From Paracoccus sp. (in: a-proteobacteria) (GTDB lineage: Bacteria > Pseudomonadota > Alphaproteobacteria > Rhodobacterales > Rhodobacteraceae), in the NCBI GenBank assembly GCA_030538425.1, contig JAUNTZ010000002.1, positions 1 to 64,000 of the forward strand: DNA of 64,000 nt, given 5' to 3'. Made by a program: the position numbers and the translations under genes. Positions within the stretch are counted from its first letter, which is position 1; every line of letters starts with the position of its first letter. Below, in pieces: positions 35,837 through 55,215 of this stretch. The notes under the pieces were generated by a model. The model saw nothing but the letters and a program-made list of their open reading frames with translations. It was not told where the DNA came from and ran no database searches.

Positions 35837-35973
35837 TCATTGGCCTGCGCGGCTGAGAAAATGAATCGCCCTTATCGGCATGGTCACCATGAGCAAGTCT
35901 GGCCTCATAGCGCCGCCCAACGCCTGCTTTTCCGTCACAGGGACAACAAGAACGAGCGATATTCCGCGACGGT
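35837..35973 (-). pseudogene. nadD 3'-end remnant 1
   Basis: The minus-strand frame ending at the TGA at 35837-35839 reads VTEKQALGGAMRP...VTMPIRAI, clearly the C-terminus of NadD (intact gene: [14 protein letters not shown]...VNVPMKAI). At the DNA level 41 of 57 ungapped positions at 35871-35927 match 36562-36618 of the intact nadD. No start codon or N-terminal part is present, so it is a displaced tail about 45 codons long. The rest of the 35690-36169 spacer beyond this and remnant 2 shows nothing recognisable. Confidence 0.8.
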
Positions 35974-35995
35974 CGGCGTTCATTCGCGGGCGGAG

Positions 35996-36140
35996 CTATT
36001 CCGCCTCAATTCGGCCTGCGAGGATTGTGGTCGGTGAAATCGCCTTCATCGTAACTTTCGCCACCGAGCAGGCTAACGGCTCCGCTCAGCTCAAAGCCTG
36101 CAATTGCGTTCCGGGATTTAAAAAACCAGCAAAACAGCTG
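35996..36140 (-). pseudogene. nadD 3'-end remnant 2
   Basis: A second copy of the nadD tail, ending in the same [13 protein letters not shown] terminus (here ILAGRIEAE and a TAG stop at 35996-35998). Upstream it keeps MKAIS and QALS but has an in-frame TGA where the intact gene has glycine, so it cannot be part of a functional protein. It lies 30 bases beyond the stop of a 95-aa ORF and 23 bases from remnant 1. Confidence 0.8.
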
Positions 36141-36169
36141 TCTTCAGACCAGCCAACATCATCAATTTT

Positions 36170-36457
36170 CTAATCCCAAAGAACAGACACCCGTTGAACG
36201 GCATTCCCGGCGATCTCAATTTCAACATGATTGCCCATGCGCGCGCCATCTTCGAGCCTGAAGCGCAGAATATTACCGTCTTCAGTCAAATCTCCAACCG
36301 CATCCGCGTAAACATTCCCTTCCATCAAGGGCGGCAAGCAATGTGAGATGCGCCACGCATCTTCCTCAGAGCCATTAAAATAGAGTTGCTTGCCATCGGC
36401 GGAGGTTATCCTGGTCCAGCTGCGATCACCCGGTATTTTCAGACGCGCCTTTGTCAT
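36170..36457 (-). CDS. Hypothetical 95-aa protein between nadD and its remnants
   Basis: Unrecognised small soluble protein (starts MTKARLKIPGD, ends VQRVSVLWD), acidic in the middle with alternating beta-strand-like segments such as GNILRFRLEDGARMGNHVEIEIAG. No membrane segment or signal peptide is visible. The ORF and its surroundings are clearly less GC-rich than the neighbouring genes, a sign of recent arrival. It is bracketed by intact nadD and two nadD tail remnants, the same layout as the barstar gene at 54.2 kb, so an immunity or antitoxin role is a reasonable guess but not shown. Confidence 0.6.
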   Translation of the reverse strand: MTKARLKIPGDRSWTRITSADGKQLYFNGSEEDAWRISHCLPPLMEGNVYADAVGDLTEDGNILRFRLEDGARMGNHVEIEIAGNAVQRVSVLWD

Positions 36458-36512
36458 CGTCGTTCATCCTTTTAATACGACCCGCAAAACGACGTTGAAA
36501 CCGCGCGCCGTC

Positions 36513-37115
36513 CTACTCCGCCTCGATGCGCCCCGCCCGAATGGCGGTTGAGGAAATCGCCTTCATCGGCACGTTCACCATCGACCATGCCGGCGGCACC
36601 GCGCCGCCCAAAGCCTGCGATTCCGTCTCCGCGATGCGAAAACGGGCAAGATAGCGGGCGGCGGGCGACAGCCTTGCCCGCATCCGGGCGCCGGGGCGGG
36701 CCAGAATGCCGATGGGGACAAGCGCCGCGATCTCTTGCCAGTCTTCCCATTGGTGGAACTGGGCAAGATTGTCGGCGCCCATCAGCCAGACAAAGCGGAC
36801 ATGCGGATAGCGATGGCGCAAGGCGCGGATCGTGTCGATGGTCAGCCGCGTGCCGAGCCGAGCCTCAAGATCGGTCACCGTGACACGCGGGTGATCCATG
36901 ATCTGGCGGGCGCGGGCAACGCGCTCCTCAATCGGGGCGGGGCCATGCGCCTTGAGCGGGTTGCCGGGCGTGACCAGCCACCAGACGCGGTCCAGCCCAA
37001 ATCGCCGCAATGCCTCGCGGGTGATATGGACATGGCCCTGATGGGCCGGATCGAACGATCCGCCGAGCAGCCCGATGCGCTGTCCGGGCGCGGCATATGG
37101 AAACTGGTTTGTCAT
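36513..37115 (-). CDS. nadD: Nicotinate-nucleotide adenylyltransferase
   Basis: 200-aa enzyme that makes deamido-NAD from nicotinate mononucleotide and [20 protein letters not shown] near residue 15 carries the nucleotidyl-transferase HxGH motif, [17 protein letters not shown] lies in the middle, and ISSTAIR near the end is the second nucleotide-binding motif. The C-terminal ~45 codons are duplicated twice downstream as broken remnants, so the present 3' end may be a recent replacement. Confidence 0.94.
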
Positions 37116-37204
37116 AGGCCGATCTAGGCCCGCCGCGCGGCAGGCCGCAAGCGGGATTTGCAGCGCCAGAGCGCCACTGTATGAGCCATGCGGAACAGGT
37201 CAGA

Positions 37205-53537: not shown

Positions 53538-53552
53538 TCGGGCGCAAAAGGA

Positions 53553-53588
53553 AAACGGCGCGAGGGGCAACCTTCGCGCCGTTTCTTT
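53553..53588 (+). terminator. Intrinsic terminator after DAHP synthase
   Basis: AAACGGCGCGA pairs with TCGCGCCGTTT in an eleven-pair stem around a ten-base loop, followed by CTTT. It could also work from the other side for the broken cytochrome b561 gene. Confidence 0.8.
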
Positions 53589-53599
53589 ATGTCGCGATT

Positions 53600-54060
53600 T
53601 CAGGCCCGCAGGACGGGCAGCATCCACGCGGTCGTGCCATCGCGCAAGACGAACTGGTGATACAGCGCGCCCGCGATGTGCAGCCCGACCAGCATCAGCA
53701 GAACCGTGGTCAGAACCTCATGTGCCTCACCCGCGGCCTCAATGCCCAGAAACCAGTTGGCTGCGCCCGAAAGCGGGATCAGGATGATCACCGCGTAAAG
53801 CGCCCAATGAACCGCACCGGCCAGAACGCCCAGCCCGGCGGCTGCGGCGCCTGCGGTGACGAGACCCGCACCGCCAGCCGCCACAGCGCAAGCAGCAGGA
53901 TCAGCACGCCCGGAAAGATGTGCAGAAAGGGCGCGCCCGAAGCGATGGCCTTTGCGCCTTCCATGAACTCGGGCGTGACATATTAAATGGCGATCAGGCC
54001 CGCGATGATCCAATGCAGGCCGATCTGTGCGGGGAATATCTGAACATGTCGGTAATCCAT
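53600..54060 (-). pseudogene. Cytochrome b561 family gene, disrupted
   Basis: The minus-strand start MDYRHVQIFPAQIGLHWIIAGLIAI begins a b561-type diheme cytochrome, with the first heme histidine in LHW. It meets an in-frame TAA at 53983-53985 and then continues YVTPEFMEGAKAIASG and LHIFPGVLILLLALWRLAVRV. After about 53865 the reading frame shifts to one with VLAGAVHWALYAVIILIPLSGAANWF and VGLHIAGALYHQFVLRDG, which has the later heme histidines. One stop and one frameshift make it a pseudogene, unless both are sequencing errors. Confidence 0.8.
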
Positions 54061-54092
54061 GCCGCGAAACTGCGGTGATGGATAAAGGTAGA

Positions 54093-54205
54093 TCAGCCCG
54101 CGCCGTTCCAAAGCTGCGTCAACGCGCCGCGCGGATCATCGGCGGGCCAGATGGCCAAGACATCGGCCATGCGGTGCGGGGTCTCAACGGTCGCGCGGCT
54201 CAGCC
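54093..54205 (-). pseudogene. thiE 3'-end remnant
   Basis: The minus-strand frame ending at the TGA at 54093-54095 reads LSRATVETPHRMADVLAIW then PADDPRGALTQLWNGAG, matching the end of the intact thiE (LDRATVERLHSMADFFAIG ... ADDPREALTQLWTLAG) with a short in-frame deletion. It begins exactly at the stop codon of the barstar-like gene, so the junction is sharp. It has no start and is a displaced gene tail. Confidence 0.85.
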
Positions 54206-54589
54206 GGGCAGCAGCGTGATGCGCGGATGTTCTGCAATGATCTCAAGGATCTCATCGAAATAGCTGGGCCCGGTGCCCCCTTGCAGCGCCGCGATCCGGG
54301 CGCGCAGCGCGGGCTGGTCATAGGTGGGTTGATCCAGCCGCGCCACCAGATGCGCGATGGTCGCGGCCGGGCCAAGCGCCTTGCGGCTATGTTCCATATC
54401 GCGCCAGTGCAAGGTCACCGGGCCGCCCGCCCCCGTGCCATAACCGCCATGGAACAGATCGTTCAGCGCATCAAGGCTGTGGCCCAGTTGCCAATCCTCA
54501 TTCGCCATGAACAGCCGGTTAATCTCAGCGTAAAAACCCGCGATCCCGTCGATGCGGCTCCCCTCAATGGTCAGGACAGTCGCGCTCAA
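54200..54589 (-). CDS. Barstar-like ribonuclease inhibitor
   Basis: 129-aa protein of the barstar family: IDGIAGFYAEINRLFM, then GHSLDALNDLFHGGYG (compare the LDALWD helix of barstar) and VTLHWRDMEHSRKALG. Barstar binds and blocks barnase-type RNases. No RNase gene is nearby, so it is an orphan immunity gene. A TTG at 54589 overlaps the thiE TGA and is taken as the start; a second TTG five codons earlier is possible. It is bracketed by intact thiE and a thiE tail remnant. Confidence 0.8.
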   Translation of the reverse strand: MSATVLTIEGSRIDGIAGFYAEINRLFMANEDWQLGHSLDALNDLFHGGYGTGAGGPVTLHWRDMEHSRKALGPAATIAHLVARLDQPTYDQPALRARIAALQGGTGPSYFDEILEIIAEHPRITLLPG

Positions 54590-55215
54590 CCCGCGAGGGT
54601 CCAAAGCTGCGTCAGCGCCTCGCGCGGATCATCGGCACCCCAGATCTCGGGGCCGATGGCAAAGAAATCGGCCATGCTGTGCAGGCGCTCAACGGTCGCG
54701 CGGTCAAGCCCGCCCTCGGCCACGACCGGCACTTCGATCATTTCCGACCACCATTCGAACACGTCCAGCGGCACGGTTTCGCCCTGACCAAGGCCGGTCT
54801 GCCCGGCGGGGCCAAAAGCCACATAATCGGCCCCCGCCTCAGCCGCGTTCAGCCCGTCATGGCGCGAGACCCCGCAAAACGCGCCGATAATCGCATCCAC
54901 CCCAAGCGCCTTGCGCGCGGCCCGCACGCCCCGCGCCCCGTCGCTCAGATGAACGCCGTCCAGCCCATGGGCCTGCGCGATCAGGATATGGTCGTCGATC
55001 ACCACCGCAATGTCGCGGGCATGGGCGATCTCGCGCACCGTGTCGGCCATGCGACCAAGCGATGCCTCATCGCCCTCGCCACGGATGCGGATACAGGCCA
55101 CCTCGGCGCGGTCCAGCAATTCGGCCAGCATCGGGCCAAAGCTTTCCGCCTGCGCACCGACCGGCGTCACCAGATAAAGTTGCGGCTCATTGGGGGAGAG
55201 GTCGGTCTGGGTCAT
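54586..55215 (-). CDS. thiE: Thiamine phosphate synthase
   Basis: 209-aa TIM-barrel protein of the ThiE/TenI family: LYLVTPVGAQAES, AVVIDDHILIAQAHGLDGVHLSDG, GAFCGVSRHDGLNAAEAGADYVAFGP and VPVVAEGGLDRATV. It joins the thiazole and pyrimidine moieties of thiamine. Compared with classic ThiE, the diphosphate-binding region is modified (CGVSRHD), so a variant role is possible. The last ~37 codons recur downstream as a broken remnant, suggesting that the present 3' end replaced an older one. Confidence 0.85.
   Translation of the reverse strand: MTQTDLSPNEPQLYLVTPVGAQAESFGPMLAELLDRAEVACIRIRGEGDEASLGRMADTVREIAHARDIAVVIDDHILIAQAHGLDGVHLSDGARGVRAARKALGVDAIIGAFCGVSRHDGLNAAEAGADYVAFGPAGQTGLGQGETVPLDVFEWWSEMIEVPVVAEGGLDRATVERLHSMADFFAIGPEIWGADDPREALTQLWTLAG

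What the first reader, a model, noticed from the sequence alone, without database searches (positions are those of the whole stretch)
35837..54700. A shared process: 3'-end replacement that imports small cargo genes at housekeeping loci
Three separate loci (nadD, a GGDEF gene, thiE) show broken tails of the intact adjacent gene, and in two of them a single small cargo gene sits between intact gene and tail. One cargo is a recognisable toxin inhibitor. This resembles the displaced-tip logic of Rhs/CDI loci, and the gene-end repair trick of integrative elements, but without recombinase, repeats or toxin core. It may be a general route by which immunity genes spread by homologous recombination anchored on one side only. 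The common mechanism is inference.
Basis: inference. Interest (0 to 1): 0.75.

Follow-up and report, generated by a model that had tools for sequence, protein, structure and literature searches.

The report
Duplicated gene ends across a Paracoccus genome
In this Paracoccus genome short stretches at the ends of genes have been copied side by side many times and then decayed; the extra genes caught between copies at two sites look like exceptions, not a general delivery route for immunity genes.

Summary
The broken gene tails are real: one behind thiE, two behind nadD, one behind the GGDEF gene, far above chance. Non-genic direct repeats are about 13 times denser than in those genomes (50 in 1.008 Mb against 3 in 0.781 Mb); repeats inside genes are equally dense. 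Units are 67-265 bp, largely locus-specific, often head to tail, 65-100% alike: local tandem duplication followed by decay. They are polar: 20 contain only a stop, 1 only a start.

The cargo part fails as a generality. Leaving out one paralogue row, 2 of 28 tails bracket a separate ORF, both in this window; one is a barstar relative, the other has no family. Gene and tail share C-termini not seen in the relatives examined, and pooled differences fit decay of copies born identical. Partly supported: a lineage-level burst of tandem duplication at gene 3' ends, cargo secondary.

The parts
54586..55215 (-). thiE (thiamine phosphate synthase), intact
   Evidence: Pfam TMP-TENI E 3.7e-28
54200..54589 (-). 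barstar-family gene between thiE and its tail; read from a TTG that overlaps the thiE stop
   Evidence: Pfam PF01337 E 6.8e-7, 29.6 bits over a cut-off of 23.4, for the longer ORF 54200-54604; sequence; gene call
54093..54209 (-). decayed copy of the thiE 3' end, with a stop in the same place
   Evidence: score 63 against a shuffle maximum of 16
53600..54013 (-). C-terminal part of a cytochrome b561 gene, apparently frameshifted and truncated
   Evidence: Pfam PF01292 in residues 64-133 only; sequence
36513..37115 (-). nadD, intact
   Evidence: NCBIfam NF000843 E 4.9e-92
36170..36457 (-). small ORF (95 aa) between nadD and its first tail; no known family, weak coding score
35985..36138 (-). 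first decayed copy of the nadD 3' end plus a little of its downstream sequence
   Evidence: 70% over 154 bp; score 62 against a shuffle maximum of 18; alignment
35864..35943 (-). second decayed copy of the nadD 3' end
   Evidence: 74% over 80 bp; alignment
37520..38488 (-). GGDEF gene, intact
   Evidence: Pfam GGDEF E 1.2e-41
37420..37564 (-). repeat unit at the GGDEF 3' end (about 45 bp of gene and about 100 bp of spacer), first copy
37276..37419 (-). second, head-to-tail copy of that unit (no cargo)
   Evidence: period 144, gap 0; 95/134 matches, score 66 against a shuffle maximum of 29

Best explanation
The tails are products of local tandem duplication. In this Paracoccus lineage, segments of roughly 70-270 bp, very often spanning a gene's 3' end and the following spacer, are duplicated in place. 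The upstream copy keeps the gene whole; the downstream copy is a tail without function that decays by substitutions, deletions and further duplication. Shown: local, same-strand, largely locus-specific repeats, many head to tail, with a wide range of identities, a large excess in this genome (and a smaller one in its two closest relatives), and concentration at gene 3' ends. Inferred: the duplication step itself (slippage or illegitimate joining), and the reason for the 3' bias, which is either that only these duplications harm nothing or that they start there. The barstar gene at thiE and the AT-richer ORF at nadD are later or accompanying insertions at two such loci (inferred).
For: Direct against inverted near repeats in the first 735 kb: 35 clusters against 0 at score 50 or more. 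Sample of 1.008 Mb: 50 non-genic repeat loci against 3 in 0.781 Mb of 18 other genomes (p 1.4e-9), genic 20 against 14 (p 0.86) (one of the 20 is a scaffold-gap artefact). Closest relatives in between: G132 3 in 145 kb after dropping two gap artefacts, G131 5 in 171 kb. 28 of 50 have 30 bp or less between copies; median unit 143.5 bp; identity 0.65-1.00. Units of different loci hardly match: 7 weak hits (6 pairs) in 1225 pairs. Polarity: stop-only 20, start-only 1, both 8, neither 21, against a placement null of 0.254, 0.299, 0.243, 0.205 (p 2e-6 for stop against start); divergent gene pairs 3 of 47, expected 0.195 (p 0.012); 11 of 14 'neither' loci between co-directional genes lie nearer the upstream stop. 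Differences in the 23 tails of the first sample fall 63/54/117 over codon positions, about what a neutral tail and a constrained gene born identical should give (my reasoning, not simulated). GGDEF-nadD spacer 404 bp here, 71 bp in G132 and -2 to 252 bp in 8 other relatives; 666 bp in G131, which has its own repeat there.
Against: Simple duplication does not put an unrelated ORF between gene and tail, and no remnant of a second cargo copy lies after the tails (183 and 147 of 200 shuffles score as high), so at thiE and nadD a second event must be assumed. At some loci third-position differences dominate (L063 11 of 17, L076 8 of 11, L116 6 of 9, L123 14 of 22), and at L123 the spacer is better conserved than the coding part (99/106 against 93/115; seen also); both would fit an exchange with a diverged copy. 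No read data could be examined, so misassembly of the youngest repeats is not excluded.
Confidence: 0.78

Rival explanations
1. One-sided replacement: incoming DNA from a relative recombines homologously inside the gene and joins illegitimately downstream, so the donor's gene end and a cargo gene are installed and the recipient's old gene end is left as a tail.
For: At thiE the cargo fits flush: barstar begins on the thiE stop and the tail begins at the barstar stop. None of 29 thiE loci of relatives holds a barstar match within the stretch fetched, and in L033, L034 and L049 aroG follows thiE directly. The mechanism is proposed for T6SS immunity arrays (PMC5361080, passages read). Third-position excess at four other loci and 16 of 30 at nadD.
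Against: 26 of 28 tails carry no separate cargo. Gene and tail share C-termini not seen in 29 thiE and 31 nadD genes of relatives, so any donor would have to be close kin. thiE differences 6/5/4 by codon position show no excess of silent changes. Head-to-tail arrays with a gap near zero are not predicted.
Confidence: 0.12
2. Assembly artefact: the assembler put strain variants or contig overlaps in tandem.
For: Three identical pairs 155 bp apart are such artefacts (55 bp on both sides of 100 N: L268, L238, L239). The genome is a draft of 92 contigs, 86.6% complete.
Against: None of the 50 counted loci contains N. Three quarters are less than 0.87 alike, too diverged for strain variants. Repeats at 3' ends but hardly at 5' ends are not expected. 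Six stretches (119 kb) of five other low-completeness drafts of the genus (84-90%) have 0 non-genic and 3 genic repeats at the same cut-off.
Confidence: 0.05
3. Remnants of a mobile element or integrase that targets gene 3' ends and restores them.
For: 3'-end targeting with a displaced tail is how such elements look (recalled).
Against: Units of different loci hardly match (7 weak hits in 1225 pairs), no common motif is seen by eye at the junctions of the seven young loci printed, and none of nine proteins at the window loci is a recombinase.
Confidence: 0.03

Closest known systems
Close direct repeats / short tandem duplications of bacterial genomes (work of Achaz, Rocha and others, recalled; PMC4060949, passages read, reports close pairs of 10-mers mostly over-represented in intergenic regions)
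   Same: Local, same-strand repeats outside genes that arise in tandem and decay
   Different: Here the units are about 145 bp, the density is about 13 times that of other members of the genus, and they concentrate at gene 3' ends
Orphan immunity arrays and displaced C-terminal tips in T6SS, Rhs and CDI loci, explained by homology-facilitated illegitimate recombination (PMC5361080, passages read)
   Same: A displaced 3' end lies behind a newly placed small gene; one of the genes is a toxin-inhibitor relative
   Different: Housekeeping genes, no toxin or effector core; nearly all tails carry no cargo; gene and tail look like each other's nearest kin
Barstar family (PF01337)
   Same: Profile match over the family cut-off
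   Different: No barnase-type ribonuclease (PF00545) found in the held, 86.6% complete genome; no solved chain matched by phmmer at E up to 1

Membership tests
Local tandem duplication (close direct repeats) | Same-strand copies adjacent or close, in excess over inverted copies | tested here: met
Local tandem duplication (close direct repeats) | Copies identical at birth | tested here: inconclusive
   pooled codon positions 63/54/117 fit; L260, L081 and L118 are 99-100% alike in their best segment; four loci lean to third positions
Local tandem duplication (close direct repeats) | Empty site in relatives | tested here: met
   at 58 nadD and thiE loci of relatives the best tail score is 23 (62 and 63 here); 8 of 58 exceed the best of 30 shuffles by 1 to 4 points. 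GGDEF-nadD spacer 71 bp in G132, but 666 bp with a repeat of its own in G131
Homology-facilitated illegitimate recombination importing immunity genes | Cargo between gene and displaced end, generally | tested here: not met
   2 of 28 tails
Homology-facilitated illegitimate recombination importing immunity genes | Displaced end diverged from the new end as between strains | tested here: inconclusive
   thiE 6/5/4 and shared private C-termini speak against; nadD 9/5/16 and four other loci are open
Integrative element restoring a gene end | Recombinase or shared core site | tested here: not met
   nine proteins at the window loci; units and seven junctions
Barstar | Profile match over the curated cut-off | tested here: met
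   (Pfam); no match in NCBIfam
Barstar | Inhibits a barnase-like ribonuclease | not testable with these tools
   needs an assay; no PF00545 gene found

The most novel reading that the evidence does not exclude
In this Paracoccus lineage duplications start at transcript 3' ends (for instance where transcription ends and meets replication), so that gene ends are hot spots of tandem duplication; the resulting arrays then act as landing pads into which foreign small genes are occasionally captured, as at thiE and nadD.
Probability: 0.2. Interest if true: 0.75.

Novelty: new variant of a known kind. Interest (0 to 1): 0.48.

Why it matters
It shows a lineage in which about 3% of the genes sampled carry a fresh or decayed copy of their own end, a natural record of short tandem duplications of many ages. 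Because it is strongly polar, it can be used to separate where duplications arise from where selection lets them stay. It also warns that a displaced gene tail beside an immunity gene is not by itself evidence of import.

Tried and rejected
Tried: a general cargo route (2 of 28 tails); functional enrichment of cargo (n = 2, not testable); barstar genes elsewhere bracketed by tails (nine other matches in seven genomes: best upstream/downstream repeat at most 1 point above the highest shuffle at seven of them; L090 17 against 13 and L091 22 against 17, both in G146, with the upstream copy more than 850 bp from the gene, which repeats, whose output was cut); cargo remnants after the tails (none above shuffles); a shared mobile unit; strain-variant misassembly. 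Papers: in the listings I saw no report of tandem duplication at gene 3' ends in Paracoccus or other bacteria; this covers only those terms and that open library (one search listed none). PMC5361080 and PMC4060949 were seen as passages, the rest as search listings.

Flawed: the pooled coding-versus-spacer identity is not used, since several rows aligned a stretch to itself. The gene caller is home-made. Rows dropped: L068 (paralogue) from the tail counts; L268, L238 and L239 (N gaps); one search was run with unoriented loci and is replaced. The GGDEF gene of the window is among the 50 repeats but not among the 29 tails, because only about 45 bp of its end is duplicated. The polarity counts (37 loci of the first sample) are superseded (50 loci).
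Full report
What was checked. Its nearest named relatives by GuaA are Paracoccus (89%); the nearest genomes held, by the same protein, are G132 (95%) and G131 (91%).

The tails are real. Behind thiE, the last ~125 bp of the gene recur 380 bp downstream; behind nadD there are two copies of the gene end; behind the GGDEF gene there is a head-to-tail copy of a 144-bp unit made of about 45 bp of gene and about 100 bp of spacer. In the window scan no other direct repeat reaches 32; the next, 31, is between two neighbouring ABC-type ATPase genes (the kind is recalled from the sequence). 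At 58 thiE and nadD loci of relatives, with up to 1.5 kb downstream (217 bp at L040), the best score is 23, against 62 and 63 here; 8 of the 58 exceed the best of 30 shuffles by 1 to 4 points, so very old remnants there are not excluded.

I took 60 stretches of the same genome, with the window 1.008 Mb or 37.5%. For every called gene of 80 codons or more, the last 150 bp were searched in the next 2 kb, and the first 150 bp in the 2 kb upstream. Copies scoring 30 or more: 29 of 884 gene 3' ends, 7 of 868 5' ends, and none on the reverse strand (3' against 5' p 2.8e-4). In 18 other genomes of the genus the figures are 4 of 678 and 3 of 692, with 1 on the reverse strand, and several of them are paralogues; 3' ends here against there p 1.3e-4. 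In G132 the figures are 3 of 115 and 0 of 117 (one of the 3 a gap artefact, and 1 on the reverse strand), in G131 1 of 151 and 0 of 146. A gene-independent scan gives the same picture: 50 non-genic direct-repeat loci per 1.008 Mb here, 3 per 0.781 Mb in the 18 genomes, 3 per 145 kb in G132, 5 per 171 kb in G131, and 0 in 119 kb of five other low-completeness drafts. Repeats inside genes are about equally dense in both sets (20 against 14; p 0.86), so the excess is not a matter of composition or method.

What the repeats are. The median unit is 143.5 bp, the median period 173.5 bp, and 28 of 50 have 30 bp or less between copies. Identity runs from 0.65 to 1.00. Units of different loci hardly match (7 weak hits, 6 pairs, in 1225 pairs). 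Printed alignments of ten loci show plain tandem duplications: for example L081, where a 145-bp segment covering both ends of a convergent pair is doubled and both genes stay whole, and L075, where the junction of two overlapping genes is doubled, leaving a 46-codon ORF between two intact genes. Eight of the 50 have more than 150 bp between copies; at two of them, L117 and L118, a further copy lies inside, and only thiE and nadD hold a called ORF there. Differences between gene and tail in the 23 tails of the first sample fall 63/54/117 over codon positions 1/2/3. A tail without constraint and a constrained gene that started identical should give about this; divergence between functional genes should give more third-position changes. 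This is reasoning, not a simulation, and four loci lean the other way.

Polarity. Of the 50 loci, 20 contain only a stop codon, 1 only a start, 8 both, 21 neither; random segments of the same lengths that do not fall inside a gene, placed in the 18 other genomes, give 0.254, 0.299, 0.243 and 0.205. Stop-only against start-only has p 2e-6. Divergent pairs are under-used (3 of 47, expected 0.195, p 0.012; three loci at contig edges left out), and of 14 'neither' loci between co-directional genes 11 are nearer the upstream stop. Selection is a sufficient cause, because a doubled gene end harms less than a doubled promoter and start, but a mutational origin at transcript ends is not excluded. The single start-only locus (L274) is 0.84 alike, so none is among the youngest, but their number is small.

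The cargo. By the midpoint rule, at 24 of 28 tails no called ORF lies between gene and tail; at two a small ORF made of duplicated ends does; at two, both in this window, there is a separate ORF. The thiE one is a barstar relative, found in 8 of 125 genomes of the genus, this one included; the nine other matches are not flanked by a comparable repeat. No barnase-type ribonuclease was found in the genome. The nadD one has no family and a weak coding score; three other genomes give only marginal matches (E about 0.006-0.008). The thiE arrangement, with barstar starting on the thiE stop and the tail starting at the barstar stop, does fit a one-sided import, and I keep that as the leading rival for this one locus. 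But the thiE and nadD tails share C-terminal residues with their own gene that were not seen in 29 thiE and 31 nadD genes of relatives, so a donor, if any, was close kin.

A recurrent site. In G131 the GGDEF homologue in front of nadD also has a duplicated 3' end, with no detectable similarity to the unit here, and its spacer to nadD is 666 bp; G132 has 71 bp and no repeat there at the cut-off used. So the same gene end seems to have been duplicated independently in two of these three genomes (inference).

Limits. On rechecking I corrected the number of other genomes from 15 to 18 and the thiE relatives from 30 to 29; neither changes a rate or a probability.

Noticed in passing
window 56795-56853: A dispersed ~60-bp GC-rich repeat behind a terminator-like hairpin; similar copies in nine other stretches of this genome's sample (E up to 1e-6) and in G131 and G132.
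   Followed up: partly
window 55910-56449 and 56086-56457: The ORF on the minus strand (MACKPGSVRG...) lies antisense to RNase P RNA (RF00010, + strand, 277 bits) and is most likely not a gene.
   Followed up: yes
L268 2814-3023; L238 10499-10708; L239 4649-4858: Identical 55-bp stretches on both sides of 100 N: most likely scaffold joins of overlapping contig ends, which mimic tandem repeats.
   Followed up: yes
L246 12681-13041 (G131): Tandem duplication at the 3' end of the GGDEF homologue in front of nadD in the second-closest genome, unrelated in sequence to the one in the window.
   Followed up: partly
window 59292-59341: SAM/SAH riboswitch (RF01727, minus strand, 55 bits).
   Followed up: no
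L012 1596-1673 (G033): A short reverse-strand piece of nadD (26 aa, 65%) lies just behind nadD in G033.
   Followed up: no
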